Shown: positions 24,856 to 48,524 of the stretch, piece by piece
Layout of the letters: each line of letters opens with the position of its first letter
Numbering within the stretch: the first letter of the stretch is position 1
Assembly (NCBI GenBank): GCA_027605045.1
Contig: JAQFWX010000008.1
Location: forward strand, 1,178,001-1,242,000
Direction: 5' to 3'
From: Phallus indusiatus
Lineage: Eukaryota > Basidiomycota > Agaricomycetes > Phallales > Phallaceae
Length of the DNA stretch: 64,000 bases
Notes under the pieces: model-generated
Databases searched by the model: none
The model's input: the letters and a program-made list of their open reading frames with translations, nothing else
Told to the model about the DNA's origin: nothing
Made by a program: the position numbers and the translations under genes

Positions 24856-24884
24856 TCGCAAAAATCGAAACCGCCGGATCTAGG
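24856..24884 (+). repeat. Left terminal inverted repeat of Plavaka element
   Basis: TCGCAAAAATCGAAA followed by two unmatched bases and GCCGGATCTAGG. The right end, reverse complemented, reads TCGCAAAAATCGAAA, two bases, GCCTGATATTGG. Confidence 0.75.
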
Positions 24885-25052
24885 AGGCCAAAATCTGACG
24901 GAGGCTGACGGGGACTGGCGCAGCCTGAAGGCCTGATTGGGGCTGACCGGGTCAGATATGAACTGGAGTTTTCATATCCAACCATATCAGAATACCAATA
25001 ATTGAATAAATGTTTATCTGGTTGTAGGTACATGGAATTGAGCTATAAATTG
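24885..25052. other. Left subterminal region of Plavaka element
   Basis: Contains clustered short motifs CTGACGG, CAGCCTGAAGGCCTGAT and GGCTGACCGGGTCAG, matching in style the GTCAGGC cluster at the right end. Such subterminal repeats bind transposase in CACTA-type elements; role here is inference. Confidence 0.5.
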
Positions 25053-25236
25053 TTATATGTCTGTCTGACGGAGCCGCTGATCAAGATAAAATCGCAAAAA
25101 AGAGTCGGAATCAACCAAGTCATTGAGATAGAATATTCTCTTTGATTTCTCGAATGCCGGAATCATATGGCACCCTCGAATGAGATATTTGACGAACACG
25201 AAATCAGACTTTGTTTTCTCCTCAAAGACGCGGCAG

Positions 25237-25254
25237 CCTTCCCATTTTGTTTTC
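25237..25254 (+). repeat. LINE target-site duplication, 3' side
   Basis: CCTTCCCATTTTGTTTTC, 18 bp, identical to 32585-32602. It lies in the transposase codons for KTKWEG. Confidence 0.9.
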
Positions 25255-25274
25255 TTTTTTTTTTTTTTTTTTTT
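25255..25274 (-). other. LINE poly(A) tail
   Basis: Uninterrupted run of 20 T on the plus strand directly next to the target duplication; the poly(A) end of a target-primed reverse transcript. Confidence 0.9.
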
Positions 25275-25448
25275 ATGGAGCTATAGTCGATAAAGTGTTT
25301 AGACATGGTCTAGCATTTACGGACAGCTGGAGAATCACGCGTGGTGACCTGGGTTAAACATGTGGCATAGGCATATAATTCATAAACCGTTGACGCTCTC
25401 AGGGGAAAAATGCAATTACGCACGCCTCTATTTGAGGCAGTGTGGGAC

Positions 25449-28400
25449 TCATGGCGGGCGCCATCTTGCTATACCCACTAAAAAACCCCTGATGCTGTCC
25501 GGTGTGGAGTCTTTTATGTGGTCGTTATGGAGCACTGGGCCCCAGATTGCCTGGACCTTCTTTATCTTCTTTGATTTTTTTCCGTATTTAGGGTTTGTGG
25601 CTCTTATGTCGAAGTGGATTCGTTCGGTTAGGGTGTTAATCCATTTGTTGGTGAGTTCGGCAGTTGATGGAATCTTATCTGGGTCTGACTCGTGTTCGAT
25701 CTTCCACTTGCATCTCACTTTCCAGTGAAGGAAGACAGTCTCTGTCATGAGAATGGTGTACAGGCTTGATTTCCCTCCTATTGTTTTGTTGTCATTGTCT
25801 TTGAAGTTCACTGCTGTGCTTCCTAGGATTGTTCCAATGTTTCTCTCGGGCCAGGTGTATCCTGTTTGTTCCCAGAGCTTTTGGGTGAGGTTCCACAGGG
25901 TATTGTATTTGATTGCATCGCATTCTGTGAGTATGTGTATAAGGGATTCAATGGTATTGCACTTTTGGCAGATACCGTTGTTTTCGGCCCCTGCTATGTG
26001 AGTCCAAAAGTTCCCTACTTTATACGCGTTGTGTATTGACTTCCATAGGAAGTTTTGTACTTCTTTGCTCAGGTGTTTATTTCTTAGGGACTTCCAAAGT
26101 CGTTCATCTGTTGGCGGTTCTCCGGTGGTCAGTTCTAGGTTCGTCTTAATAACATCGAGCATAATTTCGGTCTTTCGACGTTCATTATAGTCTCTGTGTT
26201 GGATGAGAGCTCGATATGTGAGCGCCTGGGACGCTTGGGCTAATTTTATTCCTCTTATTTTGTGGGAATTAGGGACTTCAAGATTTATTAAGTCTTCGTG
26301 TTCCTTTTGAAGGCCTTGTGTGGCTAATTCGTCCGCTCCCTCGTTACCTTCGATGCCGGAGTGACCTTTCACTTTAGTGAAGGTGGTTATTGCATTTCTC
26401 GAGTTCAGCCATGCCATCATCGCTTGTAGTATTTCGCTGTTCGCGTTTCTGGTCCATCCTTCGTCTTCGTTTCTCTGTGCATGTTTTGTTATTTGGTCAA
26501 TTGCATACTGTGAGTCTGTTCGTATTTCCAGGTCTTCGTCTTTAGGTGTTGTTTGCAGGAGTTTTAGTATTGCTATTAGTTCTCCTGCGTTGTTTGTGTT
26601 GAATCTGGGTGGTAGTTTGATGGACTTATTTTTTGGGTGGTCTTTCCCGTGCCAGATGCCTCCCGCGGCGGTCGCATTATCACATCCGTTTTTGCAGCAT
26701 GCACCGTCTGTGTATGCTAATGTCTTGTTTCTTATGAGAGGTACTGGTTCTCTTATAAGTTGTACATTTGATCTTTCGGTGTTGTTTGTTATTATTCTGA
26801 ATCCTTCATAGACATTTTGTAGTGTTATGTTGTGTCGGAATTGGACTGGAGGGTCGTTATCCTCTTCGTCTTCTGGGTCTTCTGCTGGAGGTATTGGTTC
26901 GTTTATAGGTGTGTTTGGATTCCATTTTTGGGGGAGTGCGTCGAGTAGTTTGGCCGTGGCTTTGCGGCACGTGGAGAGATTTCTGCAGCCCGCTTCCTTT
27001 GTCTCTTGGCATAGATGGCATGTGCATTTGTTATTGGGGGTATGGTCTTCGGGGAGTTCCTGGTTTAGGAATTGGTGCGCGTCTCCAACTGTTTTAATGT
27101 GGTGGGATGTCCTTAGGCATATTTTGGAGCCCCTGTTCCATCCAATTTTGTTATCTTCTAACCCTATGTGGTGCCATAGCGGCATTGATAGTTTGGTTTC
27201 TTGAGAGATTTCGAGTCCGTCTATTATTGTACCGTATTTGTATGCTGTTGTGATCATTCTTTTTAGGTTATTAGGAAGCGTTGAGTAGTGGTTGAGTTTC
27301 GGTTTCCATGTTTGGAGGAAGATATTATCGGTTGTTTCTGGTAGGTCTGTTCTTATTCCTTCTCGTGCATTGGCTTTTATGAGCTCGTCTGCAATGTAAG
27401 CCCACGTTGGTCTGGAGTTGTCCCTTATTAGGTAACTTTTGAGTTTCATTAGTTCTATCGCGTCGTTTCTTATTTTGACATCTAGGCACTTTTTTCCACC
27501 TTTAGAGTGTGGTTGGCTCATTGTGTCCATCTTGATATCTGAGCGCTTGTCGTCCCATAGGAAGTCTCTGACTAGTTTCTCTATTTGTCGGAGGACTTCC
27601 GGTGGCATTCCTTGTGTTCTGGTGAGGTATTGTGTTCGGCTCCCGACTTCTAGGTTGATTATAAGGCGTTTGCCTTCTAGGGTGAGATGTTCTTTTTTCC
27701 ACACTCCGAGGTTGTGGCGGATGGTTTCTACCATCGGAGTCCAGATTGATATCTGGTCTATGCCATTGCCTATGAAGCTTCCTAGAACTCTAACGGGGTG
27801 GTTGTCAGGGATAATTGGGATGTTTTCTGGGATTTCCTGGTGAGTTACATCTAGTTTTCGTGTGTCTATTACAGTTGATCTGTATTCTGATGTTCCTATA
27901 GGTAGGACGTTCGTCTTGGATAGGTTAAATTTAGCTCCGGGGGCTTTGCACCATTTCTGGAGGATGACGTTTAGGTCGTGGAAATTATCTTGGGAGGATA
28001 GGTATGTGGTGGTATCATCTGCGAATAGGGATGCTATTAGGCGGTCCCTTTTGGCCGGTATTTCAAATCCGTGGAGGTTGGAGTCCCTTAGCATTTGTGC
28101 TAGTGATTCTATTGCCGTATTAAATAGCAGGCATGACAGTGGGTCTCCTTGTCGGACTCCTCTCGTTATTTTTATTGGTTCACTTAGGACTCCATTGAGT
28201 ATTACTACTGTTTCTGCATTCTTATATAGGTTTTTTATTGTTTTAATAAACTTATCTGGAAATTCTAGTGCTGTTAGTGATTCCCAGAAGAAGTCATGTC
28301 TGATTTTATCGTAGGCCTTTTCTTGGTCTAGACTGACAATTGCACCATTGTGTTCCATTGTTTCGGCATAGTGTACCATTGTTTGTGCCAGGTCCGTCTG

Positions 28401-30662
28401 GTCAAGGATTTGTCTGCCTTTCATGAATCCAGCTTGGTCCGGGTGTATGATTTCTTTTGCTATTAGACCTAGGCGGGTTGTTAGGATTTTTGTCATAATC
28501 CGGTAGTCGGTGTTTAGTACTGTAATCGGCCGGTAGTTCCCGATGTCTTTTTTGTCTCCTTTTTTGTATATTGGACATAACCAACCTTCGTTGAATTTAA
28601 GATCTGGGTGGGGTCCATTTAGCTCAATGTCGTTGAAAACCTTTTCGAGGATTTTTCCTATGTCTAGTTTAGGAATTTCTTCTTGGTTTTTTTCCTTCTT
28701 AGGGGTGAACACAAGAAGTCTTTTCCATAGCTCGTTTGGTATGCCATCTAGTCCAGCAGATGATGCATTTGGGGCTTTTTTTATTGTGTAGTTTATTTCT
28801 TCTTCACTTATCGCGTTTTCTAGTTCACGTTGGCTCTCTAGGGAGAGTCTGGCAGTGAGATGTCGGGTGATTTCTCGTATTTCTGCAGTTCTCTCCTCCT
28901 GGCTTTGGGTGGGATTTATATCGGATTGCTGGAGGTTTTCATGGTGTTGACGCGCGATCTCTGCCATCCGTTTGGATGATTTTACTGTGCCGGGGTTTGG
29001 GCCCGGTGAGTTGTGTAGTCCGGTGATCACGCTGTTGTTTCGCGGTTCTTTTGTTTTCTTTAGCCAATGTTTACCTATGGTTTCTTTTTCTAGCTTCGCT
29101 CTGGTAGAAATGTTAGATCTTTTCCTTAGGTGTTTTGTTCTTGTAAGTTCGAAGATTTCTGCTTCCAGGGTGCTTATTTTTATTCGTTTTTCTTGTTCGT
29201 CTTGACCTTCTAGGTTTTTGATTCCTTCTAGGGATCTTTGTAGGTCTTGAATTCCTTTTTCTAGGATTTGTCCATGTTTTCCGGCATATTTACGAGCTAT
29301 GCGAATAATTTGGTCTTTTAGTTGTTTGTACGCTATTTGTGGGGACGGCCCGTTTATGATTTCTTGGGCTGCTAGGCGAGTTTTGTCGCATACCTCTCTT
29401 AGGAAGCGGTTGTTATCGGTGACGAACGCTGGTATGTACCATCTTCCTTTTCCTGTTTTTGGTTCGTGGGGGTATTGAATTTGGCAGGATATTATCTTGT
29501 GGTCTGTTGGGATTGCTGGGATGTTGATCTCCCATTTATTTGCGAATTTAAGGTATTTGCGGGTTATGTATATGCGGTCTATTCTGGAGTGTCTGTGTGT
29601 GCCGGAGTGGGAGTAAGTGTAATCTAGTTTTGTAGGGAAAGTGTCTCTCCAGCCATCTATTGAGTCCGTAAAGGTTTTGAATATTTGTAGAGCTTCTGTA
29701 TTCTTTTCTAAGTCGGGGTGGGGTGGGAGGCGATCCGCGGCTTCTTCAACTATGTTGAAGTCTCCTAGGGTTATGTCCGGGCGTTTAAGCCTTTTCCTTT
29801 GGATCTCTCGTCTGAGAATATGCCACAGTTCGGCATGTTTGGTTTTATCATTAGGAGCATATACGTTGAGTATTGCTAAGTTTTTTGATTCTGTCCAGGG
29901 GATCTGAATATATACTGCTCTTCCTGGGACTAGAACTTTATGTTCAATGTTGGCCCACTTTATACGTTGTTTCCGGATGAGGAATGATACACCCGCCTTG
30001 GAGGAGGCCTTCCTGGGGTGGGGTGAGTTAATTATGAGCATTTGTCTGGCAAATAGTGTTTCCAGGTTGGCTTGATTTGCTGCATTTAGGTGGGCTTCCT
30101 GAATTGCTAGGATATCTATATTTTTGTCTTTCATGAGCTGGTTTAGTTCATTCCATTTCGCTTGGTTGTGTCCTCCACCTTTAATGTTTAGTGACGCAAT
30201 TTTAAATGATTTTTTATTTGTTTTATTGTTTTGCGCCAGTCTAGTCTCTGGTGCGCATGTCGGTGAGTCTTCTTCATCAGACGATTCGCACTCTGTTGGG
30301 TCAGAGTCTGAGGATTCGTTTTCAGACTCTGGGCTTGGGGGGTCATTTTCGTTTCTGTCGTCTTCCGAGTCAGAAATGTCAGTGTTGTCGTCATTTCTGT
30401 TCTCGGTTTCACTCTCATATACATTGGGTGATTGCTCCTCGTTATGAGGGTCTGCCCTATCGTCCCAGGCCACCCGGGACGTTAGGTGGTTGGTGAATGA
30501 GTTTTGGTGTGGGGGTCTGCTTTCCGTCGCCCCAACAGTGTCCTCGGGCCGGGTTGCAGCAGTTGACTCCCCGACCCTTCTACTGCTGGGGAGTTGCGTG
30601 AACCGGTTGCCTGAATCAAGTGTGCCGTGTGTGTGTCTCTCTGTATATAGTTGTAAATTCAT
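25449..30662 (-). CDS. LINE ORF2: endonuclease, reverse transcriptase, RNase H
   Basis: 1737 residues, uninterrupted. After an acidic Ser/Asp/Glu-rich leader, an APE-type endonuclease starts near residue 155 (IASLNIKGGG; LGDFN near 296; RIDRIYI; PTDHK near 387). Reverse transcriptase follows: GLDGIPNELWK, GNYRPITVLN near 709, QAGFMKGRQ, SLDQEKAYDKI, GVRQGDPLSCLLFN, then the catalytic FADD near 881. A Cys cluster (CTCHLC) sits near 1216. RNase H begins near 1316 (AYTDGACCKNGC) with NNAGELIAIL, RTDSQYAI and VKGHSGIEGNEGADEL, so the D-E-D-D set is present. A C-terminal zinc-like motif CQKC-x8-H-x4-C lies near 1562. Nicks target DNA and copies element RNA at the site. The EN-RT-RNase H order and zinc motif point to the Tad1 group. 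Confidence 0.93.
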   Translation of the reverse strand: MNLQLYTERHTHGTLDSGNRFTQLPSSRRVGESTAATRPEDTVGATESRPPHQNSFTNHLTSRVAWDDRADPHNEEQSPNVYESETENRNDDNTDISDSEDDRNENDPPSPESENESSDSDPTECESSDEEDSPTCAPETRLAQNNKTNKKSFKIASLNIKGGGHNQAKWNELNQLMKDKNIDILAIQEAHLNAANQANLETLFARQMLIINSPHPRKASSKAGVSFLIRKQRIKWANIEHKVLVPGRAVYIQIPWTESKNLAILNVYAPNDKTKHAELWHILRREIQRKRLKRPDITLGDFNIVEEAADRLPPHPDLEKNTEALQIFKTFTDSIDGWRDTFPTKLDYTYSHSGTHRHSRIDRIYITRKYLKFANKWEINIPAIPTDHKIISCQIQYPHEPKTGKGRWYIPAFVTDNNRFLREVCDKTRLAAQEIINGPSPQIAYKQLKDQIIRIARKYAGKHGQILEKGIQDLQRSLEGIKNLEGQDEQEKRIKISTLEAEIFELTRTKHLRKRSNISTRAKLEKETIGKHWLKKTKEPRNNSVITGLHNSPGPNPGTVKSSKRMAEIARQHHENLQQSDINPTQSQEERTAEIREITRHLTARLSLESQRELENAISEEEINYTIKKAPNASSAGLDGIPNELWKRLLVFTPKKEKNQEEIPKLDIGKILEKVFNDIELNGPHPDLKFNEGWLCPIYKKGDKKDIGNYRPITVLNTDYRIMTKILTTRLGLIAKEIIHPDQAGFMKGRQILDQTDLAQTMVHYAETMEHNGAIVSLDQEKAYDKIRHDFFWESLTALEFPDKFIKTIKNLYKNAETVVILNGVLSEPIKITRGVRQGDPLSCLLFNTAIESLAQMLRDSNLHGFEIPAKRDRLIASLFADDTTTYLSSQDNFHDLNVILQKWCKAPGAKFNLSKTNVLPIGTSEYRSTVIDTRKLDVTHQEIPENIPIIPDNHPVRVLGSFIGNGIDQISIWTPMVETIRHNLGVWKKEHLTLEGKRLIINLEVGSRTQYLTRTQGMPPEVLRQIEKLVRDFLWDDKRSDIKMDTMSQPHSKGGKKCLDVKIRNDAIELMKLKSYLIRDNSRPTWAYIADELIKANAREGIRTDLPETTDNIFLQTWKPKLNHYSTLPNNLKRMITTAYKYGTIIDGLEISQETKLSMPLWHHIGLEDNKIGWNRGSKICLRTSHHIKTVGDAHQFLNQELPEDHTPNNKCTCHLCQETKEAGCRNLSTCRKATAKLLDALPQKWNPNTPINEPIPPAEDPEDEEDNDPPVQFRHNITLQNVYEGFRIITNNTERSNVQLIREPVPLIRNKTLAYTDGACCKNGCDNATAAGGIWHGKDHPKNKSIKLPPRFNTNNAGELIAILKLLQTTPKDEDLEIRTDSQYAIDQITKHAQRNEDEGWTRNANSEILQAMMAWLNSRNAITTFTKVKGHSGIEGNEGADELATQGLQKEHEDLINLEVPNSHKIRGIKLAQASQALTYRALIQHRDYNERRKTEIMLDVIKTNLELTTGEPPTDERLWKSLRNKHLSKEVQNFLWKSIHNAYKVGNFWTHIAGAENNGICQKCNTIESLIHILTECDAIKYNTLWNLTQKLWEQTGYTWPERNIGTILGSTAVNFKDNDNKTIGGKSSLYTILMTETVFLHWKVRCKWKIEHESDPDKIPSTAELTNKWINTLTERIHFDIRATNPKYGKKSKKIKKVQAIWGPVLHNDHIKDSTPDSIRGFLVGIARWRPP

Positions 30663-30951
30663 GGTAAAAGTAGTGTGTATAAGCCTCTGCTTGCCGTCGC
30701 CCCAGCAATGTCATAGGACCGATTTGCAGCAGTTGACTCCTCGGCCCGTCAATTACTGAGGAGGTGATAAACCGTGAGCCAGATAAAGTTAACCGTATTT
30801 TGAGTTGGGGAATAGGAGTGTTTGGCTCGTTTTCCCGGGAGTTCCTTGATGGTAAGGAAAGTTCAGGTAACAGACATTATTAATTTGTATTGTATGTATC
30901 TAGTGGTGGGCATAGTTCGACTTATGGCATATATCTAGCTAGGTGGGATAT
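30663..30951 (-). other. LINE inter-ORF region
   Basis: 289 bp between ORF1 stop and ORF2 start. It contains a diverged repeat of the ORF2 leader (a GTTGACTCC-type block at 30561 and 30731), which may matter for reinitiation; this is inference. Confidence 0.4.
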
Positions 30952-32346
30952 CTAGTTCCCTCTTCTTCCTCTAGAGCCTCTACCTCTTCCGCGGTAAGCG
31001 TTGTTTGGAGGGGCTGTTTGGGGGGATCCGCTCTCCTGTCCTTCTTTATCATATGGGTGCGAGGTAGGCCATCCTAGGATGTTGGTGTATGGGCATGAGG
31101 TTTTCCGGTGCCCGAGGGACTTGCAAACGAGGCAGAAAAGTTTGTCTGGTTCCTGTACGGTGCCGCTCACCGTAGCGCTGTCGTACTTGACTTTTAGGAT
31201 TAGGTCTCTCCATGTTTGAAAGTCAAGGGGGGAGAGGGGAGGTGGGGTGATGTGTACGCGATATACCGGTGTCCTTGCAAGTTGTGTGTGGCCGTTGTTT
31301 CTACGCGGGTTGTTCGGAGCCTGGTATAGGCCGTCAACGCGTACTTCCAGTTCGAAGTTGGATTTCACGGTCTGGTTGACGAAGTGTACGAACTGGGGGT
31401 TTGCCCGAAGGCACGATATTACGCACTGTTTGACCTCTTTATAAGCCTCCTCTGATAACTCGAGGGGGACGTCCATAAGGCTGAAGAGGAAAGAGGGGTT
31501 GGGAGGGTTAAAGGGGATGGCGAAGAAGGTGAACTCCTGGTAGGCCCAGCAGTGGCGGGTTATAAGGGTGTTCGCGTTTTCCTCTGAGAGGTTGAAGACT
31601 AGGTAGGGAAAGATCCAGCGTCTTCTTCCTTCAGTGAAGACGGGGCTCGGGATGAGCATGCTTGGTTTTTCCGTCAGGTTGAGGGCTTTGCGTATGTATA
31701 GTTCGAAGCGGCTTCGTCTGTCGAGCGTTTTTTCGGTGACTTCGTCGTAGGCAGCGTATACCAAGACTTTGTGGTCTGCTGCGTTGACCCAATGAGGGAT
31801 TTTGTTGGGCTGGATCTGGGCGAGGATGTCCTTTTGGTTAAGGCCCTCGAGGCGTGCAAATCCCTCTTCTGGGATGGGAAGAGGTAGTTCGTCTGGTTCT
31901 TCTGAGGGGCCGCCGCTGGCTTGGTTGTTTGATTGGGAGTTGTCCTTGTCAGCAGAGGAGGCGGCGTCTTTGTCTGGGATTGGTGGGGAGGCGTTGTTGT
32001 TTCCCAGGTTCACCCGGAAAGAGAATTGTGTGATGTCTTTGGGTGCTTGGGATGGGATAACGTCCATTGATGATTGATCTGGTGTGGCGTTCTGGCTGGC
32101 AGCTTGGGTGAGGGGGTGTGGGATGACTGCCCCGGATTCTTCTCCAGCGCTCATTCTCGGTCTACGTCGTTGGTCGTTATGTCCTGACGGGGAGCGTTCG
32201 AGATAGGTACGTTTAGCGTTTGTGGGTGGTGGAGTTGTAGCTCTCAGAAGGCGTTCTTTTTGGGCAGCAGAGAGTGATTGCATTCTTAGAAGAGTCGGTA
32301 CTTGTATTATGCCACGATGTTTTAAGGAGTCACGTGGTATGTTCAT
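30952..32346 (-). CDS. LINE ORF1: Gag-like nucleic acid-binding protein
   Basis: 464 residues beginning about 240 bp inside the element. The N-terminal third is Ser/Pro/Gln-rich and likely disordered. A conserved middle (PHWVNAADHKVLVYAAYDEV, FPYLVFNLSEENANTLI) resembles the globular region of fungal LINE ORF1. A CCHC zinc knuckle, C-x2-C-x4-H-x4-C (CLVCKSLGHRKTSC), lies near residue 410 and a Gly/Arg tail (RGRGRGSRGRRGN) ends the protein. Such proteins coat element RNA. No frame break seen. Confidence 0.9.
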   Translation of the reverse strand: MNIPRDSLKHRGIIQVPTLLRMQSLSAAQKERLLRATTPPPTNAKRTYLERSPSGHNDQRRRPRMSAGEESGAVIPHPLTQAASQNATPDQSSMDVIPSQAPKDITQFSFRVNLGNNNASPPIPDKDAASSADKDNSQSNNQASGGPSEEPDELPLPIPEEGFARLEGLNQKDILAQIQPNKIPHWVNAADHKVLVYAAYDEVTEKTLDRRSRFELYIRKALNLTEKPSMLIPSPVFTEGRRRWIFPYLVFNLSEENANTLITRHCWAYQEFTFFAIPFNPPNPSFLFSLMDVPLELSEEAYKEVKQCVISCLRANPQFVHFVNQTVKSNFELEVRVDGLYQAPNNPRRNNGHTQLARTPVYRVHITPPPLSPLDFQTWRDLILKVKYDSATVSGTVQEPDKLFCLVCKSLGHRKTSCPYTNILGWPTSHPYDKEGQESGSPQTAPPNNAYRGRGRGSRGRRGN

Positions 32347-32584
32347 CAGGAGTCGTACGATGCTTGGTTTTTTAATTTGTGGTCACTCAGTCTTTGGTAC
32401 ATGGTTCTAATTGTCGTGGTTTTTCTTTTGTTTGGGGGGTAGCTAAACTTGAGACGTCGGATTTTTAAGAGCTTGTTTAGGTCTACTAAACAGTGGCTGT
32501 CCGTTTTTTGTCTCACCCGTGTAAAGAAGTGCGCTTTTTCCACTCCAGTGACCGAGATGGTCGTGGTAAAAAGGCAAGGGACCC

Positions 32585-32602
32585 CCTTCCCATTTTGTTT
32601 TC
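32585..32602 (+). repeat. LINE target-site duplication, 5' side
   Basis: Perfect 18-bp copy of 25237-25254. Confidence 0.9.
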
Positions 32603-32684
32603 GGTTTCCATGAAGAGGGGTCAAGGTAAGTGATTAAAGCAATATCGTGGTAGACGTTAGGAGATTCGTGAAGCCGGAACAAAC

Positions 32685-33485
32685 TGTCAGGGTACGCTAC
32701 CGCCGTCTCTCATTTTCTTATTTATTATCATCAGCATCACTTCTTTTCTATTTTATTTATCATTTCCATATTTTACTTTCACTCTCCGTTTCCTTGTTCT
32801 GTCTCTATTTCACTTTCTCTACTTGTAAGGATACGATCGTTCGGTGGTTTAGACTTAAGGATCAGACGTTATAACCCAGTAGTCCAATCTATAATAGCGC
32901 AAGGAGCTACACTTGCACGCACAGTAGTACTTATATACATGAGTGGGCTATCTCTGTCCAATAGTGCTCAGGTGCTCTATCTACCAATAGGAAAGGAGGC
33001 AGTCGACGACAAATGAGAAACAGGAGTGGAAAGGAAGATGGTGACAGTATGGAAGCGTATGGAGAAACGGGGAATATACGGGAGAATACGGGAGGATAAC
33101 ACGGACCGGCATACTGGGTACCGTACGATGGATATGGTAACACGTAGGTCAGCATATACGTCTATACTATACGCACAGTATACTAGATTAGCCCTTATAG
33201 TCCTAGCACGTACCCTGACACTACTCGCGCGCGTTGCGCGCTCGTACCCGGCATGATGCCCGTGACATCACGTCGCTTAGGTTCGGCTTGGGTGCCTGGC
33301 ACTTAGCTGTGTCAGGGCCGCATGCCGCGTTGTTGTTGTTTTATGTATATAGTAGCTGTACCTAGAGTGAGGGTCCCTAAGCTTGTTCTCTTAGGATCCC
33401 CTCCCTCTAGGTGAGTAGTTAGTATTCTCCTTAATATATTATCTTAGGATCCCCTCCCTCTAGCCTGAGCTGAGTAGCCCTAACA
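32685..33485 (+). mobile_element. Alpha-family LTR-like element (alpha1), containing nested gamma1
   Basis: Starts TGTCAGGGTACGCTACCG and ends GAGTAGCCCTAACA, with a 5-bp duplication CAAAC on each side (32680-32684, 33486-33490). About 399 bp of its own sequence after removing gamma1. No gag or pol. It splits the transposase between QLHG and LFRLH; joining at the duplication restores frame. Confidence 0.85.
32824..33220 (+). mobile_element. Gamma-family LTR-like element (gamma1)
   Basis: Starts TGTAAGGATACGATCG, ends CACGTACCCTGACA, 397 bp, flanked by CTACT duplications (32819-32823 and 33221-33225). Lies inside alpha1, so it inserted later. Confidence 0.85.
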
Positions 33486-38818: not shown

Positions 38819-39822
38819 GCAAATTCAACGGATGTCATGGAGTCATCCTCGGTACTACAATTCCCTTCAATCTAAAATTGTGAATTAATCAAAACTTATT
38901 AGCTGAAAAGAGTAATAAACATACTATAGGCATGTAGCCGATAAGCACACCACCACCATTTCCAGAGCCATTTCGGATTGAGCTGGGCAAGAAGCCTGCG
39001 CGCAGAATAATTGGGTGTTTTTTGACTGTCCTAGCAACATTGCTTTTATCAAGCCATAAATGTAATGGAAGGAAGCAGTGTGGTATTCCTTCTTCATTTG
39101 GAAGAGAGTCCTTAAATTCCAAAGTGCCAATGTTAGTGGATTCTAAGCGGAAGATGGACATGAATAATCATTGTTTTAACTACCTGTATCTCCCACCAAC
39201 GATCACCAGTATTGAGTTCATCATAAATCCGCGTAATGCGACCATGGTGATGAAGCCATTTCTGCTCCGGATACCATATGATGGAATCTGCCAAAGTAGG
39301 GTCCGTCACAATGTCTAAAACCCATTGCCATGGGTCTCGGTATTGGAATGTGAAGCTGTATTTTTTCCCTTTGAACTCATGTACAATGGTCTCCTCTTTA
39401 AACTATTGAATTGTCAAAAAATGCCAGTAAGGAAAGGCAGAGATATGCACTTACCCGAACGCTAAAATTACGTGCAGCTGCCAAAGACCGTTGATAGTCA
39501 GAAAAGTTTCGAAGCGTCAACTCTGTTCCAGATGCCCATCTTCTGTTAAGTCCTTCTAAAAGTGTTTCAATTGTTTCCTTGTCAAGTGCTTTTGAGACGG
39601 CGATACGACAGAATTCAAAATCAGCGCGACTGCGAAATGGGGCCCAGGGACTATCATCGTCCGGACCTTGAGTTGCAGTAGGATTGGCTGACGACGCTTG
39701 GTTTAATGTTGGATCATCAAGCAGGATGATAGTTGATGTTTTGCCGCTGTGAGGATGATGCATAACGCGTATGAATTCTTGTACAGCATCATGAGCTGCA
39801 CTGCCAGTTGAATTGGAGTTTT

Positions 39823-40175
39823 TGTCACGGTACGCTAGCGCCTTTTCCGATTATTCGATTTCTTCGATTTTCTTTCGGTTTCATTTCGTGTTACGATTTC
39901 CTTCATTTCCCGTACTTTGCCGTTTCCATTAGTTCCATCGTTTTCTCGATTTTTCGATCTCTTCGATTTTCCTCGATTTCTGTCTGTATCTCCTCGGATC
40001 CCATGGGGATCAGTCGAGCGCTTCGTATCCTGTACTTATATGCGTTTTCCCTAGAGGGGGATACCTAAGCTTGTTCTCTTAGGTTTTCCCTCCTCTAGGT
40101 GAGTAGTTAGTCGCTGCCCCTCAATAGATCTTAGGTTTTCCCTCCTCTAGGTGTGTGCCCTGAGTCGCCCTAACA
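39823..40175 (+). mobile_element. Beta-family LTR-like element (beta1)
   Basis: Starts TGTCACGGTACGCTAGCG, ends GAGTCGCCCTAACA, 353 bp, GTTTT duplications at 39818-39822 and 40176-40180. Splits the transposase between DPIDEN and SNSTGSA with frame kept on joining. Carries the CCTAGAGG...CCTCTAGG hairpin shared with the alpha family. Confidence 0.85.
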
Positions 40176-40315
40176 GTTTTCGTCAATCGGATCTTCTTCT
40201 TCAGATTCTACCTCGTCTAGGTAACACAGTAAGGTTTTTTTAATGTATGGAAAACTACAAAAAAATTGCTTACCCTGCATCTCCTCGTCAACTGGTGGAA
40301 ATATTAGCTCCGGTC

Positions 40316-40711
40316 TGTAAGGGTATGATCGTTCAGTAGTTAGCTTAAGGATCAGACGGAGTATAACCCAGTAGCCCAATCTATAATAGCGCAAGGAACT
40401 ACTCTTACGCGCACAGGTGTATATATATACATGAGTCCGTTATCTCTACCAATAACGGTCAGGTGCTATATCTACCAATAGGAAGGAAGGCAGCCGATGA
40501 CGAATAGGAGAACATGAGAAAGAGGAAGATGGTGACAGAATAGAAGCGTACGGAGAAACGGTGGAAGTACGGGAGAATACGGGAGGATAATACGGACCGG
40601 CATACCGGGTACCGTACGATGGATATGATAACGCGTAGGTCAGCATATACGTCTATACTATACGCACAGTATACTAGATTAGTCCTGATGGTCCTAGCAC
40701 GTACCCTGACA
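40316..40711 (+). mobile_element. Gamma-family LTR-like element (gamma2)
   Basis: Starts TGTAAGGGTATGATCG, ends ACGTACCCTGACA, 396 bp. Flanks CGGTC (40311-40315) and TGGTC (40712-40716) are a target duplication with one difference. Joining gives SLSGPELIFPP in the transposase. Confidence 0.8.
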
Positions 40712-41258
40712 TGGTCCAGACAAACTGTCAGGAGGAGGATCTGGCAGGATATCCACTGGTGTTCCCGCTATTGATTGTGCATGAGCATGCCTGGCCAGAC
40801 AGCTTTTTATGTGTCTGTCAAAACCCCATCTATTAACAGGCTGGTTGCAGGAATCACACAAGCGTTGATGATTTTGCAGATGGATGGTATGATTCAACTT
40901 TTTTGCAGATGTGGTTCTACTATTAAAAGGTGAGATCAAGACATAAACACAAAATTCATTTCATACCCCATGTTATCACTTTTAAATGATTCTCCAATTA
41001 GATGTTAAGGGAATGGCGAAGCTTGAGTCTTGAGAAAGCAGGGAGTCGTAGATCATGACATATGCCCGGGCTTGCACGCCGGTCCTTCACCTCGCTAAGT
41101 TAGTATCCACTGCACCTCATATGATGTTGACGCACCTTTTTTTTTCATTCTCAACTTTACTTGAACTCTTACAATCACACTGTCAGAAAATATGTCCAGC
41201 AGTCCCGAAAGTTCTGCATCCGAGGGTGGATTTGGTTCGGATATGTCAATTGGAACAT

Positions 41259-41652
41259 TGTAAGGACACGATCGTTCAGCGGTTGAGACTTAAGGATCAG
41301 ACACTATAACCCAGTAGTCCAATCTATAATAACGCAAGGAGCTACTCTTGCGCGCACAGTTGTATATATATACATGAGTGGGCTATCTCTACCAATAGCG
41401 CTCAGGTGCTATATCTACCAATAGGAAGGAAGGCAGTCGATGACGTAAGAGAAACATGAGTAGAAAGGAAGATGTGACAGTATGGAGCATACGGAGAAAC
41501 GGGGAAAGTATGGGAGAATACGGGAGGATAACACGGACCGGCATACCGGGTACCGTACGATGGATATGATAACGCGGAGGTCAGCATATACGTCTATACT
41601 ATACGCACAGTATACTAGATTAGCCCTTATGGTCCTAGCACGTACCCTGACA
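41259..41652 (+). mobile_element. Gamma-family LTR-like element (gamma3)
   Basis: Starts TGTAAGGACACGATCGTTCA, ends ACGTACCCTGACA, 394 bp, AACAT duplications at 41254-41258 and 41653-41657. Splits exon 1 of the DUF6698-like gene; joining gives SIGTLKQ in frame. Confidence 0.85.
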
Positions 41653-41830
41653 AACATTAAAACAAGTATGCATTTCATATATCCCTCATATTCATGTAGA
41701 CCTACTCTTGCTACTGCAGGTTTTGAGGAAAACACAGGCCAAGAGTAATGCAAGATCTGTTCAGCTAGCTGAAAAAGACCGGCGTATTGCTACTCTCACC
41801 AATCGGGCTGAAACCGTGCCAAAGGACCTA

Positions 41831-42355
41831 AGGCTGTCCACAGGTATTGGATTACCCGGGTTACCCGAACGGGTTGACAGGTTTTTACCCGCGGGTCACG
41901 GGTACCTGCTTACGTAATTACCCGGGTCAATTTTACCCGCGGGTCCGGGTTTCACTTTAGACAACAAGCAGGTACCCGCGGGTATGCAATAACCTCGGTC
42001 CATGTCATATAAGTACAATTTTTGAGTGAATTTCGTCGTGTTTTTTTTTTTATTTTGGCTCTAGAGAGCTCAAAATTTACTTAAAATGAAAATAAAAAAA
42101 TATGTAATAAATATTTTTCGAATATCTACAAGATAAGTCGGGCGCTTAAATAAGCGCCCGTGTTACATAATCAAAAAAATCGTCTGAAATCGTCTAAACT
42201 AGAGAGTTTTGAGACACTCTCTATGACCCGGGTACCCGCCACAGGTTACCCGTACCCGTCGGGTAATTACCCGCGGATCCAGGTTCCACTTTGAGAGCAG
42301 GTCATTACCCGTGGGTAGGTACCCATACCCGCGGGTAATTACCCGTGGACAGCCT
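41831..42355. mobile_element. TA-flanked MITE 1
   Basis: Inverted ends AGGCTGTCCAC...GTGGACAGCCT between TA dinucleotides (41829-41830, 42356-42357), 525 bp. Inner parts carry many copies of the palindrome ACCCGCGGGT and its variants on both sides of an AT-rich core. Non-coding, so mobilised in trans, likely by a Tc1/mariner-type enzyme. Confidence 0.75.
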
Positions 42356-42893
42356 TAAAAGGACCACCAGGAGCCACCAAAAAAGAATGTGTACATTCAA
42401 GATTCCAAAAAGCGCTCTCAGGTTGGGAAACTTGCAAGAGAGTTCACTTATATGTACGCTTTCTGGGTTAGTCCAACAGATGAAGAAATCCTTACACTTG
42501 AACTGGATCCATCCTACAGTGGCGCGCAAAACGGTACACGCGTTTGTAATTTTTCGCGCGCAAACGTAATATAGAGCTCAATAAATTCTTTAAAATTCTG
42601 GAAATATTTGTGTAATTAGTCTAATATATCTACTACAATTTTCGTTAAGAGCCAAAAAAAAAATAATCACTAATTTACAAGATATTAAGTTAGCTTTGTG
42701 ACAAGCTCCGGTGTACAGTTTTGCACCTTTTGTAATTAGACATGAATTTAGTACTTTGTATGGCCACCCTTGGCTTTTAGCACTGCCTCTACCCGTCTAG
42801 GCATACTGTCACGGTACGCTAGCGCCTCGCTCGATTATTCGATCTTTTCGATTTCCTTCGGTTTCATTTCGCACTTCGATTTCCTTCACTTTC

Positions 42894-43289
42894 TGTCAGG
42901 GTACGCTACCGCGTCCCCTCATTTTTCCTTATTATTATCATCGGTATATATCTATTTCCATCTTATTTACATTTCCCGTGCATTACCTCTACTTTCCGTT
43001 TATTCTCTCCGTCCATATTTCACCTTCTCTACTCGCGCGCGTTGCGCGCTCGTACCCGGCATGATGCCCGTGACATCACGTCGCTTAGGCTCGGCTTGGG
43101 CGCCTGGCACTTAGCTGTGTCAGGGCCGCACGCCGCGTCGTCGTTTTATGTATATAGTAGCTGTACCTAGAGTGAGGGTCCCTAAGCTTGTTCTCTTAGG
43201 ATCCCCTCCCTCTAGGTGAGTAGTATAGTTACCTTCCAATATATCTCTTAGGATCCCCTCCCTCTAGTGTGAGCTGAGTAGCCCTAACA
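42894..43289 (+). mobile_element. Alpha-family LTR-like element, uninterrupted (alpha3)
   Basis: 396 bp, TGTCAGGGTACGCTACCG...GAGTAGCCCTAACA, CTTTC duplications at 42889-42893 and 43290-43294. Cleanest copy of the family and the reference for alpha1 and alpha2. Nested in beta2. Confidence 0.88.
43166..43216 (+). other. Conserved hairpin in alpha/beta elements
   Basis: CCTAGAGTGAGGGTCCCTAAG pairs, with two or three mismatches, with CTTAGGATCCCCTCCCTCTAGG across a CTTGTTCT loop. A second direct copy of the right arm follows at 43247-43267. The same plan occurs in beta elements (about 40052-40100 and 43434-43482) with partly different stem bases. Confidence 0.7.
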
Positions 43290-44814
43290 CTTTCCGTATC
43301 TTACCATTTCCACTACTTTTGTCGTTTCTTCGATTTCTCGATTTCTTCGATTTACTCCGATTTCTGTTTCTATCTCCTCGGATCCCATGGGGATCAGTCG
43401 GGCGCCTCGTATTCTGTATTTATATGCGTTTTCCCTAGAGGGGGATACCTAAGCTTGTTCTCTTAGGTTTTCCCTCCTCTAGGTGTGTGCCCTGAGTTGC
43501 CCTAACACATACTTTCAATCAAGTTCTGACAAACCTCAACATCTATCCCTGACCAAACCTCTAAAATTCTTTCCCAGAGTGCATGTATGCTGGTTGGGGG
43601 TGTGTCATAGTCAAAAAGCCGTCTCTTCACAATACTCCAAAGGTGTTCTATTGGATTAAGGTCTGGTGATTGTGGTGGCCACTTCATAACTTCGATCCCA
43701 TTGTCTTCAAACCAGTCTTGGGCCTTTTTGGAGGTGTGTTTTGGGTCATTGTCCTGCTGGAAGATGATATCCCGGGCTTTCTTCCTGTATTTCTTCAGAG
43801 ACCCCTTCAAATGTTTGTCCAGGATTTTGCAGTATGAATCTGCATTCATAATTCCGTCTATATCGATCGCCTGGCCCACCCCATCCCAGCAGAAACAGCC
43901 CCACACCATAATACTACCACCACCATGCTTCACAGTTGAGTCAACCACCCGGTCACTCAGGCCTTCCCCTGGCCGTTTCCACACCCACTTTTGGCCGTCA
44001 CATCCAAAACGATTTATTTTTGTCTCGTCTGACCAAATCACCCATTTCCAATCCTCGATTGTCCAAAATTGGTGTTTGCGAGCCCAGTCAAGCCTCTGCT
44101 TCTTATGCCGGGTGACAAGCAGTGGTCGTTTAATCTTTGTTGTGGCTGTAAGACCGAGGTTTTTTAGGGATCGACGCAGCGTGCAAGTATGGAAAGACAT
44201 TTCTCTGGAGGATTACAAAATTTTTTGGGCATCTACTGCTGTAGTTGCTTGTCCGGAAAGCAAACAACGGGCGGCATATCGGACATCATGAGGAGAAAGT
44301 GATCGAGGACGGCCACTGGCTGCTCGGGGAAGCTCATTTCGATGTTCTTTTCTAATTTTAGTGATTGCCCCACGACTAACACCAACGATCCGTGTCATTT
44401 TTTTGACCGGTGTTCTTAAGTCGATGTGGTGGAGGACTCTATCTACTTTTTCTTGAGGAAGCTTCACCATGCTGAATTTCTTGCCGATTTCGTGCTCAAA
44501 AGTTTCTTTTGATATATACCTTAGTTTTCTATAGTCACATGACTTAAACTTTATTTGCTCAAAAGTCGAGAAAACCTTATTTTACTATTCATCTTCAACA
44601 CGTGCAAAACTGGCCACGTGATACCAGTCAAAAAATATATATATTGTGGGCGAACGAGCGACATTGAGCGCAACTTTCATTAAGTAAACATGTTCCCAAC
44701 ATACTCAGGTACGTTCACAAATATTTTCAGATTTATTGAGATTTTATTGACGGAGCTAAATAGGTTACACTGAAAATATCGCAAGTGCGTGTACAGTTTT
44801 GCGCGTCACTGTTA

Positions 44815-45068
44815 AGGGTCTCAATGGGTTTCGGGTATGACGGGTAATACCCGCGGGTATGGGTATTTTCGTGCAAAAAGCTAAACCATACCTGCCCCGG
44901 GTTTTGCAATTTTCAATTTTTGAGAAACGGGTTTGACCCGATACCCGCGGGTAAACCCGTGAAAAACCCGTACCTATACCCGCGGGTTTTGGAAAAAATC
45001 AAACCCACAGGTTCGGGTACCTGCGGGCGCGGGTACCCATACCCACGGGTAAAACCCGTTGAGAACCT
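44815..45068. mobile_element. TA-flanked MITE 2
   Basis: Inverted ends AGGGTCTCAATGGGTTT / AAACCCGTTGAGAACCT between TA dinucleotides (44813-44814, 45069-45070), 254 bp, filled with ACCCGCGGGTA-type palindromes like MITE 1. Its left TA is also the flank of the Tc1 element. Confidence 0.75.
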
Positions 45069-45316
45069 TAGTCACTGTATAATCCAAGGGAACGGTTTTC
45101 ATCAGCTGGAGAAAAGCAGCAGGGACTCGTGTTTGACTTGATAAATTTAATCCCAAATGACATACACACTAGATTTCAGGAATCAGATTATGTTGAACAG
45201 GTATTTTCTTTTCACCACATAAATATGTCTAAGAAATTTAATATCTGCTAGTTTTTCGCTGATATGGATCAGCAAAGGTCCAATGCCTCTAGCCAACTAA
45301 CACAGACCGGTCCCTA

Positions 45317-45893
45317 TAAGATAGCGGTCACGTCGATCCGACTACCCTTAAGCGCCCATTATGTAATCATTAGGGTTAGGGGTTAGGCGGCGAATTTTTC
45401 CAAAAATATAAATTTTTTAACCCTAATGTTCTTTGACCGTGATAAATAGAGGTGCAATGCATCATATAATCCTTCAGGCAGTTATATATTATAAAACCAA
45501 TGTAAATTTCACTGTAAATATATGAAGAATTGATGCTGCCGACTCACGTCCACCAGTGCTATGGTCGCTTATTGTCGCTTAGCGCTTCGGGATTTGCCGG
45601 TGCTTATGTAAAGGCGGCGAAATTCCTGTCGGCGAAAAAATGAAAAGTCACCAAATCGTCGAAAAAGAGCTTTGGTGTATTGCGCAGGGGCTTAGTAATG
45701 TTTGTGCTATAACTTTTTAACCGACAGCTTTTTCAAAAAAATAAAACCGTAGAAATCTTCTCTACCTTTAACTGAAACTTTCTATGGTTTTAATTTATTG
45801 ATAAATTCCAGGTGTGGCGAGCAGAAGAGCTCGACAGACTAGGGTTTATTTTCGGCGCCTAAGGGTAGTCGGATCGACGTGACCGCTATCTTA
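45317..45893. mobile_element. TA-flanked MITE 3 with long inverted ends
   Basis: About 38 bp at each end are inverted copies (AAGATAGCGGTCACGTCGAT and CGACTACCCTTA) with one difference, flanked by TA or TATA. 577 bp, no coding. Contains a short telomere-like TTAGGGTTAGGGGTTAGG near 45372. Inserted between QTGPY and the next coding block of the DUF6698-like gene. Confidence 0.8.
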
Positions 45894-47151
45894 TATTGGG
45901 TTGTACGAAAGAAGTGTTTGACGATGTCCAGTGTCGCTTCAACACATTTAAGTCATTAATTGGATTTTGTGGTCAAACAGATGGAAAGGACACGTACACT
46001 GTTCTAGCACCGATTTTGTATAAGGAAGATCCCAATGAAAAGAGAAAAATGGAGGATTTTCCGCCATCCGATTTTAATGAGGGTATGAAAAATATACTTT
46101 TCGCACTTTTTCAGGCTTTCTCAATTACAGCTAGACTTACTCTGCGCTTGTTCGAGGACCGAGTTCAGTGAAGTGCCTTTCGGACGGACAGGTGACGAGA
46201 AAACTCTCCCATGCAAATCTTGAAAGCCAGTGGAAACTCAGCTATATTACACCTGGCGCAATTGCTATGGCTGCTACTCTCGTATGTCATTTGCACCTTT
46301 CTGATCATTTTCTTGTTAATATTCCGTTTAGGCACGCTTCATAGCTTCCGCTGACCGCTCTCTACTACCATGCGGGGCTCAGACTCAAATCAACTATCAA
46401 AGCGATTATGATACTTACTTCGAGTACCTCCACACCGGTCTTCATGAGAAAAGAGTTTCCGTCATTGATATCTTCAAGACATGGAATGAAATCTTTTATC
46501 CGGATTCCGCAAATCTTCCTGCCAAGTCTAGTTCTTCTGTGCCAGAGGACGTTACGTTTCTGTTTGATGACCTAAAAGATGATGAAATCGCTGAAGAATC
46601 GAGTCAATCAGAGCCGGAACAAGACCCACCGCTGACACAGGCTGAGGCAAGGAACTCGACACCAGCTTCCCAGGATGAGGAGGATGATACATTGGCACCA
46701 AGAATGGTATCTGTCCTCACCTTTTATCGGTTAGTTGAGCTGACAGGTAAATTGATAGTCTCCTGCTTTCAATCAACCACCATCACCTTTGACGGATATA
46801 GAAGCTACTACTCCATGCGTCCATCTCGACGGTCAGCCATCGTCACCTTTAGGAGACATTAGCAACGTTTTGCATGGTCATCATGCCAGTCAAAATCCCA
46901 TCATTCGCACGCAATCTTCGGCGAACCAAAGTTTAAGGAAGCGACGGGTCATCCAGAGCGATGAGGAAGAGGAGAGCACAGGGCCTACATTTGCAAGACG
47001 CAACAGAGGTGAAAGGAAGAAGAGACGAAAGGCCGTCCCGTTGGAATCCGCAAATGAAAATGTGTCCCCTCAAGTTCGCCGTAGCAGCCATTCTAAGAAA
47101 CACTGATGCAATCGCGATTTGATATAAGAATCAATTTGAATAAACTTTGTA

Positions 47152-47722
47152 TTACAACTTTTTTTCCAATACATTACTTATACTTTCAAATCCACACTGG
47201 TTGATAAACTGTAAAGCTCTGATCTCTTCAACCATCTTTCTTTGTCCGTGCTTCAGTTTTTCTACCTCCGTCTTTAAAGCTTGAACTTCGGCCGTCAACC
47301 CTCCTGACACGCTATCGGTTCGCTGTTGCTTTATAGGCCGTCCCACTTCGGTTATCGTGTGGTTAAATGTTGCTGAGACTTTACGCTTGGGAATGGGGGG
47401 ATGAGAAATAAGTGTTTGCGGAACAACGGAAGCCTAAATTCCATCATTTTTGGCCCGACGTTGTCAAGAAAAGACATACCACGATTGTTCTGTTGTCTGG
47501 TCTTGAGCCTAGAGGAATTGCAGGTTGTAGATTTTCTACTGTCTCAGAATCTTTGAAGCGTCCCTATAAGCACCTACTGAGCACAATGGCATTCAGCTAC
47601 ATGATAAAATCACTTACAGGGTTCAATCTTTCTCTTAACGCTGGTATAACTTCACTGTCCGTGTCAGGTTCGGTCTCCGAGTCGTCGATGATCTCTGCTG
47701 GAATGTTTTCTTTATTAGACAT
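47152..47722 (-). CDS. Small coiled-coil protein inside the Plavaka element
   Basis: Start ATG at 47722 (MSNKENIPAEIIDDSETEPD), first exon ends LRERLNP at a GTAAGT donor near 47625. An intron (possibly with a small middle exon) leads to PIPKRKVSATFNHTITEVGR at about 47400 and then a heptad-rich helix AEVQALKTEVEKLKHGQRKM (47215-47290), ending VLEKKL with TAA at 47152-47154. It faces the DUF6698-like gene tail to tail, 45 bp apart, and lies inside the transposon ends. No enzyme motif; probable oligomerisation or DNA/protein-binding partner. The product would be about 120 residues. Function unknown. Confidence 0.55.
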
Positions 47723-48495
47723 GACGGAAAGGGACAAAAATGCAGCTTTAAAGAAGAAAAATGCAGCTATGAGAGGGTGCACGAATTAGACGCATAATTG
47801 AGACGACAATTTTCCAAAACGGGATCGGACGGACCTATGACGGTGAATTAGACGCTGGTTGGAGCCGCTCCACATTGGTGAAGGTATATAAGACCTTCAA
47901 CAATGCTCCACTAGTCCTATCGCTCTTGTCCTCGTTCTACTACCATCGCCAGCAAAAACGAAGTGTCGTGGAAAACGCGTGTGGAAATGAGTGCGCGCTC
48001 TTATTACGTAAAGACAATGACTAACTGCCTAACTGTCTTGTAGATAATCGCTAGGTGGGTGTACTCAACCTGTAGTATAACACATTTTTGTAGTCCATAG
48101 TATAATGTTATGTAGCTATTTACTTACCCGTGGTTATAAAATATACGTATATTGTTGCTTATAAATCCGATGTGGTGTTTGTAGTGGTTTGAAGCCGATC
48201 CGTACTAAGGTTGAGCTAGTATGAAAGCCTAAAAACAGATTTTCGACTGTCAGGCATTCCGGGTCATATACGAAGCAAGCCTGCAGATACCGAAACCCTC
48301 TCCCAGATACCAAAACCCTCTCTCAGATAGAGACACCGTCAGGCAGATACAGATACCCGTCAGGCAGATTTGAGGCAGATCAGAAAGTTGCCATCCAGAT
48401 ATGCATTCGTGTTTTGAAGTCCATTTTCTCGATCTGATCAAGCCGTCAGGCTAGATCAGGCAGACCTCGTCTGACCGGACTTATGGCCTGATATG
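47723..48495. other. Right subterminal region of Plavaka element
   Basis: No gene. From about 48250 it carries repeated short motifs: CCAGATACC/AGATACCGAAACCCTCTC units, CCGTCAGGCAGAT three times and TCAGGCAGACC, as in the left end. Likely transposase-binding array. The stretch 47900-48240 shows nothing recognisable. Confidence 0.5.
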
Positions 48496-48524
48496 CCAAT
48501 ATCAGGCACTTTCGATTTTTGCGA
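48496..48524 (-). repeat. Right terminal inverted repeat of Plavaka element
   Basis: Reverse complement of the left end: TTTCGATTTTTGCGA at 48510-48524, with imperfect extension inward. Confidence 0.75.

What the first reader, a model, noticed from the sequence alone, without database searches (positions are those of the whole stretch)
24856..48524. Plavaka transposon that carries a DUF6698-like gene and a coiled-coil gene
A matched terminal inverted repeat (15 bp perfect, 24 of 29 overall) with GTCAGGC-type subterminal arrays at both ends encloses not only the transposase but also a divergent DUF6698-like gene and a small tail-to-tail coiled-coil gene. DUF6698-like genes are scattered in many copies in agaric genomes without known function; being transposon cargo would explain that. 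Plavaka/KDZ elements with TET/JBP genes are known; a DUF6698 partner is not known to me.
Basis: partly seen in the sequence, partly recalled or inferred. Interest (0 to 1): 0.88.

Follow-up and report, generated by a model that had tools for sequence, protein, structure and literature searches.

The report
Fungal jumping gene with partner genes
This stretch of a fungal (likely mushroom-type) genome is a broken copy of a Plavaka jumping gene that carries two further genes beside its transposase; relatives of one of them (DUF6698, function unknown) lie head-to-head with a Plavaka transposase in nearly all places where they were found in this genome, so DUF6698 is likely a working part of the transposon, predicted to help the transposase handle the element's ends.

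Summary
The 15-bp end occurs 55 times in the genome. Three other copies with matched ends (7.1 kb) match the window element block by block; the rest of the window interval is ten later insertions. All three have TGT..ACA ends, 2-bp target duplications and the same genes: a Plavaka transposase (947 aa; frameshifted in one), a DUF6698 gene (527 aa) head-to-head with it, and a 156-aa coiled-coil gene tail-to-tail with DUF6698. By its ends it is PlavakaA; TET-bearing Plavaka in the literature are PlavakaB. In the window copy the transposase is cut by six inserts and DUF6698 by four; the coiled-coil frame is open.

DUF6698 is more than cargo. Of 20 DUF6698 places found in the genome (window included; about 17 loci), 18 have a Plavaka transposase as nearest neighbour in the same head-to-head layout, 16 within 3.2 kb; 0.68% of the genome lies within 5 kb of a Plavaka hit. 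This includes a PlavakaB-ended element. One diverged family keeps all three genes in order. About 18 intron-poor Plavaka places show no DUF6698.

Best reading: DUF6698 is a Plavaka accessory protein, likely a TnpA-like end-binding or regulatory factor (inferred, untested). No paper in the library mentions DUF6698.

The parts
24854..48524 (.). PlavakaA-type element, about 7.1 kb of own sequence in 11 blocks, swollen to 23.7 kb by ten insertions; right terminal CA lost
24854..24870 (+). left terminal inverted repeat TG+TCGCAAAAATCGAAA (transposase side)
48510..48524 (-). right terminal inverted repeat (coiled-coil side), 15 bp, terminal CA missing
48250..48507 (.). subterminal array of GCCTGA/TCAGGC, 7 copies
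24893..24955 (.). weak subterminal array on the transposase side: 2 GCCTGA, and two CTGACGG by eye
25053..40971 (-). Plavaka transposase gene, 12 predicted exons (40971 start to 25053 stop), cut by inserts 40316-40712, 39828-40174, 38160-38818, 34489-37380 (in an intron), 32685-33484 and 25255-32584
   Evidence: exon map from L041; Pfam PF18759 on the copy L039
41192..47106 (+). DUF6698 gene, 6 predicted exons (E1 41192-41665, E2 41720-45200, E3 45252-46082, E4 46135-46281, E5 46332-46706, E6 46759-47106), cut by inserts 41260-41652, 41829-42357, 42517-45077 and 45319-45891
   Evidence: exon map from L041; Pfam PF20414 on the copy L039
47152..47722 (-). small coiled-coil gene, 156 aa, 3 predicted exons (47722-47618, 47563-47480, 47433-47152), frame open
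25255..32584 (-). later insertion: LINE with ORF1-like (30952-32382) and endonuclease-RT-RNase H-like (25449-30710) frames, named by eye; long target duplication CCTTCCCATTTTGTTTTC; not part of the Plavaka
42517..45077 (-). later insertion: Tc1/mariner-like element (transposase frames 43502-44581, named by eye) with TA duplication; not part of the Plavaka
45319..45891 (.). later insertion: 573-bp MITE-like element with 42-bp inverted ends in DUF6698 exon 3

Best explanation
The window holds a broken copy of a Plavaka (PlavakaA-ended) DNA transposon whose sister copies carry three genes, a transposase, a head-to-head DUF6698 gene and a tail-to-tail coiled-coil gene, and the DUF6698 protein is likely an accessory transposition factor predicted to bind the subterminal repeats or the transposase. 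Shown here: matched ends, 2-bp target duplications on all three full-length sisters, frames open after predicted splicing, recurrence of the head-to-head pair in diverged copies, and fewer amino-acid than silent changes per site between two copies. Inferred: the two genes would be driven from a shared intergenic promoter region; the transposase (N-terminal zinc-finger-like motif seen by eye, plus the Plavaka core) would cut the TGT..ACA ends; DUF6698 (N-terminal helix predicted to form a coiled coil, conserved middle, acidic stretch, basic C-terminal tail) would gather the subterminal GCCTGA array as TnpA does for the maize element En/Spm; the small coiled-coil protein would pair with it or regulate it. 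The 1.8-1.9-kb derivatives that keep the ends would be moved in trans.
For: Three full-length copies with matched ends and different flanks, each with a perfect 2-bp duplication (6 of 12 paired copies of all sizes, binomial p 4e-5 against 1 in 16). Spliced models: in L039 and L041 transposase 947 aa, DUF6698 527 aa and coiled coil 156 aa all open; in L040 DUF6698 and coiled coil open, transposase frameshifted. Pfam hits. Diverged copy L067 (C112; 36-78% identity to L039 by exon) has the same three genes in the same order and orientation. Head-to-head Plavaka as nearest neighbour of 18 of 20 DUF6698 places. On C123 a diverged DUF6698-Plavaka pair (DUF6698 378128-378758) has an exact 15-bp end at 382318. 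A CATCA..TGATG-ended element on C1 (the PlavakaB ends of PMC12730594) carries a DUF6698 gene (E 1.5e-65) head-to-head with a Plavaka transposase. Constraint between L039 and L041: DUF6698 dN 0.013, dS 0.081; transposase dN 0.0009, dS 0.021; coiled coil 14 silent and 12 replacement codons. Subterminal array. Derivatives L042 and L043 keep the ends, lack the DUF6698 core and nearly all of the transposase, and have a broken coiled-coil frame. En/Spm precedent, TnpA binds subterminal repeats and TnpA and TnpD are both needed: passages of PMC2613891.
Against: No DNA binding or other activity of DUF6698 is shown; Pfam gives no other family for it, and the PDB by sequence gave only two hits at E 1.6. 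AlphaFold models are poor (mean pLDDT 46.6 and 36.4), so no fold search was run. About 18 intron-poor Plavaka places in the same genome have no DUF6698 found near them, and 4 of 17 places of the L039 kind have none (my count), so the partner is not found with every Plavaka. The subterminal array is strong at one end only. The coiled-coil gene was recognised in only two families. Five of the 18 linked places rest on E-values of 4e-5 to 6e-4, and two of these five lie 12 and 14 kb from the transposase. The CATCA-ended element shows no target duplication. One DUF6698 locus, present in two near-identical copies, has no Plavaka nearby. All the linkage comes from one genome.
Confidence: 0.5

Rival explanations
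1. DUF6698 is an anti-silencing or regulatory factor: it would protect the element from host silencing or tune expression of the shared promoter, as VANC proteins do for VANDAL elements or TET/JBP genes are proposed to do for other fungal transposons, and would take no part in cutting.
For: Fungal DNA transposons repeatedly carry a TET/JBP gene proposed to counter methylation (PMC12730594, passages); VANC proteins are sequence-specific anti-silencing proteins (start of abstracts only). The acidic stretch and basic tail (by eye) would fit a chromatin protein. Absence from some Plavaka fits a dispensable helper.
Against: No enzyme or chromatin domain was found by Pfam. The repeated head-to-head pairing in both A- and B-ended elements suggests an old and tight tie to the transposase.
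Confidence: 0.25
2. DUF6698 and the coiled-coil gene are passenger genes captured once by an ancestral Plavaka and carried along without any role in its movement.
For: No function is known. One DUF6698 locus (C195:893547 and C143:20922, two near-identical copies of a 13.5-kb region) stands without Plavaka, so the gene can exist alone.
Against: Open frames, dN below dS and the same layout in several places clearly diverged from L039 and with both kinds of ends are not expected of a passenger.
Confidence: 0.12
3. The interval is a chance mosaic: two unrelated ends, with genes from separate insertions lying between them.
For: The 23.7-kb window interval really is a mosaic with ten insertions.
Against: Three 7.1-kb copies elsewhere contain the non-inserted blocks, in order, between the same ends.
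Confidence: 0.01

Closest known systems
PlavakaA DNA transposons (Kojima 2025, PMC12730594; CMCT clade)
   Same: Plavaka transposase (PF18759), TGT..ACA ends, 2-bp target duplication
   Different: the passages read describe no DUF6698 or coiled-coil gene; the supplementary family sequences could not be read
TET+ PlavakaB transposons of Agaricus bisporus and Gymnopus confluens (PMC12730594, passages)
   Same: a Plavaka element with a second, non-transposase gene
   Different: CATCA..TGATG ends and a TET/JBP dioxygenase; here no TET/JBP domain by Pfam. A CATCA-ended element in this genome carries DUF6698
En/Spm (CACTA) TnpA/TnpD system of maize (PMC2613891, passages)
   Same: works-like comparison: two element-encoded proteins, subterminal repeat arrays, non-autonomous derivatives moved in trans; Plavaka and EnSpm transposases are related (PMC12730594)
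   Different: TnpA and TnpD come from alternatively spliced transcripts of one unit; DUF6698 is a separate, divergently oriented gene
VANDAL elements with VANC anti-silencing proteins (listing and abstract starts of PMC10398659, PMC5735166)
   Same: an extra element-encoded protein
   Different: plant host; MULE-type transposase (recalled); no similarity tested here
Pfam PF20414, DUF6698
   Same: our proteins score 44.4 and 45.7 bits (A type) and 221.2 bits (C1 type) against a cut-off of 23.7
   Different: A-type members match only about profile positions 78-203 of 206; the Pfam description seen gives no function

Membership tests
PlavakaA | Plavaka transposase domain PF18759 | tested here: met
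   L039 transposase E 4.5e-41, 141.6 bits, cut-off 26.3
PlavakaA | termini 5'-TGT..ACA-3' | tested here: met
   12 of 12 paired copies read TGTCGC..GCGACA; the window right end has lost CA
PlavakaA | 2-bp target site duplication | tested here: met
   3 of 3 full-length copies, 6 of 12 paired copies of all sizes; not seen at the window copy
PlavakaA | C(2)C and H(3-4)H between second D and last E of the transposase | tested here: inconclusive
   CPRC and HHSLVH are visible by eye in the L039 protein; not aligned to a reference
PlavakaA | position in the transposase tree | not tested
   no reference PlavakaA/B sequences held
DUF6698 (PF20414) | score over the curated cut-off | tested here: met
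   L039 44.4, L067 45.7, C1 221.2 bits against 23.7
DUF6698 (PF20414) | whole-length match to the profile | tested here: inconclusive
   C1 type 2-206 of 206; A type only 78-203 and 79-203
TET+ Plavaka | TET/JBP dioxygenase gene | tested here: not met
   the three L039 proteins match only Plavaka, DUF6698 and one sub-cut-off coiled-coil model at E up to 1
TnpA of En/Spm | sequence similarity to TnpA/TNP1 | tested here: inconclusive
   Pfam shows only DUF6698; no direct comparison with TnpA was made
TnpA of En/Spm | binding to subterminal repeats | not testable with these tools
   array present; binding needs an experiment

The most novel reading that the evidence does not exclude
DUF6698 is the founding second gene of the Plavaka transposons, older than the split into A- and B-ended lineages: a new family of element-end-binding transposition proteins, unrelated in sequence to TnpA, whose many scattered copies in Agaricomycete genomes are the footprints of Plavaka insertions; the small coiled-coil gene is a third, lineage-specific subunit.
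Probability: 0.35. Interest if true: 0.78.

Novelty: new variant of a known kind. Interest (0 to 1): 0.66.

Why it matters
It gives an orphan Pfam family (DUF6698) a genomic context and a testable role, and it shows that Plavaka elements can be two- or three-gene systems, as En/Spm is in maize. KDZ and Plavaka together make about half of the DNA elements of Marasmius oreades (PMC8290104, passages). It also means that a gene catalogue that counts DUF6698 proteins as host genes would, in this genome, mostly be counting transposon genes. The 1.8-kb derivatives and the 7.1-kb copies supply substrates and helper genes for an assay in laboratory yeast.

Tried and rejected
Chance mosaic of unrelated ends: rejected by the three 7.1-kb copies. 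A first reading of a frameshift in the DUF6698 gene was wrong: an intron in another phase restores the frame. Pfam scan of raw window pieces with stops read as X gave only one DUF6698 piece at E 0.16, as the genes are split by introns and inserts. The first look found five Plavaka-linked places among the eight; further queries brought the list to 20 places, 18 linked; a last query added no new place. Structure prediction of DUF6698 failed twice, so no fold search was made. PDB by sequence: two hits at E 1.6, ignored. Lone DUF6698 (C195:893547 and C143:20922): no Plavaka in the 7.5-10 kb read on either side; this counts against the reading. The 156-bp copies share only the 15-17-bp ends with the 7.1-kb copies and have another inner sequence, so I do not claim them as derivatives of it. 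A tree of DUF6698 against transposase was not attempted.

Independence of counts: C125, C195:1326378 and C74 are 99.7-99.8% alike over about 15 kb, and C195:893547 and C143 99.7% over 13.5 kb, so the 20 places stand for about 17 loci: 16 linked (two of them at 12-14 kb) and 1 unlinked. L039 and L040 are 99.9% alike but their flanks differ, so they are separate insertions.
Full report
What was checked. The window is C184:1178001-1242000 of an unnamed 67.2-Mb assembly in 206 contigs. The pair 24856-24884 / 48496-48524 is a 29-nt, 83% complementary inverted pair. Its 15-bp core TCGCAAAAATCGAAA occurs 55 times in the genome, 0 times for the reversed control. The inner sequence differs among the 30 ends looked at, so several subfamilies share this end.

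Anatomy of other copies. Three other pairs of ends lie 7115-7130 bp apart (L039 on C9, L040 on C34, L041 on C45). They align with the window in 11 blocks, and the blocks of L041 are 99.0-100% identical to the window. The gaps between blocks are ten later insertions in the window copy; by eye 10 of 10 have repeated target bases at their junctions: a LINE, several solo-LTR-like pieces, a Tc1/mariner-like element and MITE-like pieces. In 12 of 12 paired copies examined the ends read TG-TCGC..GCGA-CA, and 6 of 12 (3 of 3 of the full-length ones) have an exact 2-bp duplication outside them, binomial p 4e-5. TGT..ACA ends with 2-bp duplications define PlavakaA in Kojima 2025 (PMC12730594, passages read), where all TET-bearing Plavaka are PlavakaB. 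No other pair of exact ends has a Plavaka hit between them.

Genes. In L039: coiled coil 1315-1886 (+), DUF6698 3774-1932 (-), transposase 3995-7433 (+), all open after predicted splicing. In L041 the same three are open. In L040 the transposase is frameshifted and the other two are open. Pfam on L039: transposase PF18759 E 4.5e-41; DUF6698 PF20414 E 2.1e-11, 44.4 bits over a cut-off of 23.7, profile positions 78-203; coiled-coil protein nothing over cut-off. In the window the transposase spans 40971 to 25053 with six inserts, DUF6698 41192 to 47106 with four, and the coiled-coil frame 47722 to 47152 is open. Between L039 and L041, DUF6698 has dN 0.013 and dS 0.081, the transposase dN 0.0009 and dS 0.021, and the coiled-coil gene 14 silent and 12 replacement codons.

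Ends. CCTGA (either strand) occurs 10 times in the two ends of L039 against a shuffled mean of 0.9 and maximum of 6 in 5000 single-base shuffles; it is dense on the coiled-coil side and weak on the transposase side. Two 1.8-1.9-kb copies (L042, L043) keep both ends at about 90-96% but have lost the DUF6698 core and nearly all of the transposase, and their coiled-coil frame carries stops. The 156-bp copies share only the outer 15-17 bp.

Not just one family. Protein searches of the whole genome give 20 DUF6698 places, the window included; Plavaka places come. These searches score only the best candidates, so counts are lower bounds. One search took the nearest Plavaka hit for each of the 20: 18 of 20 are head-to-head (left gene -, right gene +), 16 with a gap of 1.0-3.2 kb and 2 (both on C121) with 12.1 and 14.3 kb; in the latter gap Gypsy-like frames are seen by eye. 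Five of the 18 (C140, C162:1015576, C112:150730 and the two on C121) rest on E-values of 4e-5 to 6e-4. The two unlinked places are near-identical copies of one region. The genome fraction within 5 kb of a Plavaka hit is 0.68%. Seen from the transposase, by my own count over: of 17 places whose best exon matches the L039 transposase at 48% identity or more (one only a 39-aa fragment; some may be parts of one split element; window included), 11 have DUF6698 within 3.2 kb, 2 at 12-14 kb and 4 none; the 5 places of the C1 kind all have it; about 18 intron-poor Plavaka places have none.

Two anchors. L067 (C112:157501-165500; 36-78% identity to L039 by exon) has the same three genes in the same order and orientation; the DUF6698 model is open (603 aa), the coiled-coil frame is open by eye, and the transposase is broken by an insert; DUF6698 scores 45.7 bits. 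The C1 element (local 6737-13571 of L051+L052) has ends CATCAGCAAAACGGC..GCCGTTTTGCTGATG, which are PlavakaB-type ends, and a DUF6698 gene of 221.2 bits head-to-head with a Plavaka transposase (60 bits for one exon); no target duplication is visible there, and a coiled-coil gene was not looked for systematically. Its end pattern occurs 12 times in the genome. A further diverged pair on C123 (DUF6698 378128-378758, transposase 375213-376936) has an exact 15-bp end of the window's kind at 382318.

Elsewhere. Homologues by protein search are in Sphaerobolus, Ramaria, Ceratobasidium, Clathrus, Serpula and Gautieria; the database gives no genomic context. The aligned proteins share, where complete, an N-terminal stretch before a conserved middle and a basic C-terminal tail (by eye). 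AlphaFold gave a fairly confident helix only at residues 33-66 of P0001 (block pLDDT up to 84; mean 46.6 overall); the second model was worse (36.4).

Reading. The element is a PlavakaA-type transposon with two extra genes, one of which, DUF6698, is a standing partner of a large part of the Plavaka in this genome. The likely role is an accessory transposition protein like TnpA of En/Spm, which binds subterminal repeats and is needed together with TnpD (PMC2613891, passages). This last step is inference. Anti-silencing is the main rival.

Literature. DUF6698: 0 papers; PF20414: 0 papers; Plavaka: 11 papers, of which I read passages of five (PMC12730594, PMC8290104, PMC9674265, PMC11244446, PMC11075540); none of those passages names DUF6698. 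A further mixed search gave nothing of use. Iyer et al. 2014, which named Plavaka, was not in that listing and was not read.

Noticed in passing
window 34489-37380 (ORFs 35732-36397, 36430-37188); L065 9036-9650; L066 5822-6487: A pair of ORFs of unknown function inside an LTR-like insert; by eye similar ORFs sit beside a Gypsy-like element in L065/L066, so they may belong to a retroelement or a non-autonomous partner of it.
   Followed up: no
L061/L062 (C195:886001-903000) and L063/L064 (C143:13001-31000): A 13.5-kb region 99.7% identical on two contigs, with a lone DUF6698 gene among what look by eye like metabolic and transporter genes: either alleles kept apart in the assembly or a segmental duplication; a candidate host-domesticated DUF6698.
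   Followed up: partly
L053/L054, L057/L058, L059/L060: A DUF6698-Plavaka pair with a CATCA end sits inside a unit of about 15 kb that is 99.7-99.8% identical on three contigs; its right end was not found.
   Followed up: partly
L039, L040, L041: The DUF6698/coiled-coil half differs by about 5-7% between L039/L040 and the window/L041 type while the transposase half differs by about 1% or less: a mosaic that suggests recombination between element subfamilies.
   Followed up: no
C151:1687790, C1:1198374, C123:403814 and about 15 others: Intron-poor Plavaka transposases with no DUF6698 found nearby: what, if anything, takes the partner's place was not looked at.
   Followed up: no
window 25255-32584: LINE with a long open frame (1753 aa stop to stop) and an 18-bp repeated target sequence, inserted in the transposase last exon, so probably recent.
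   Followed up: partly
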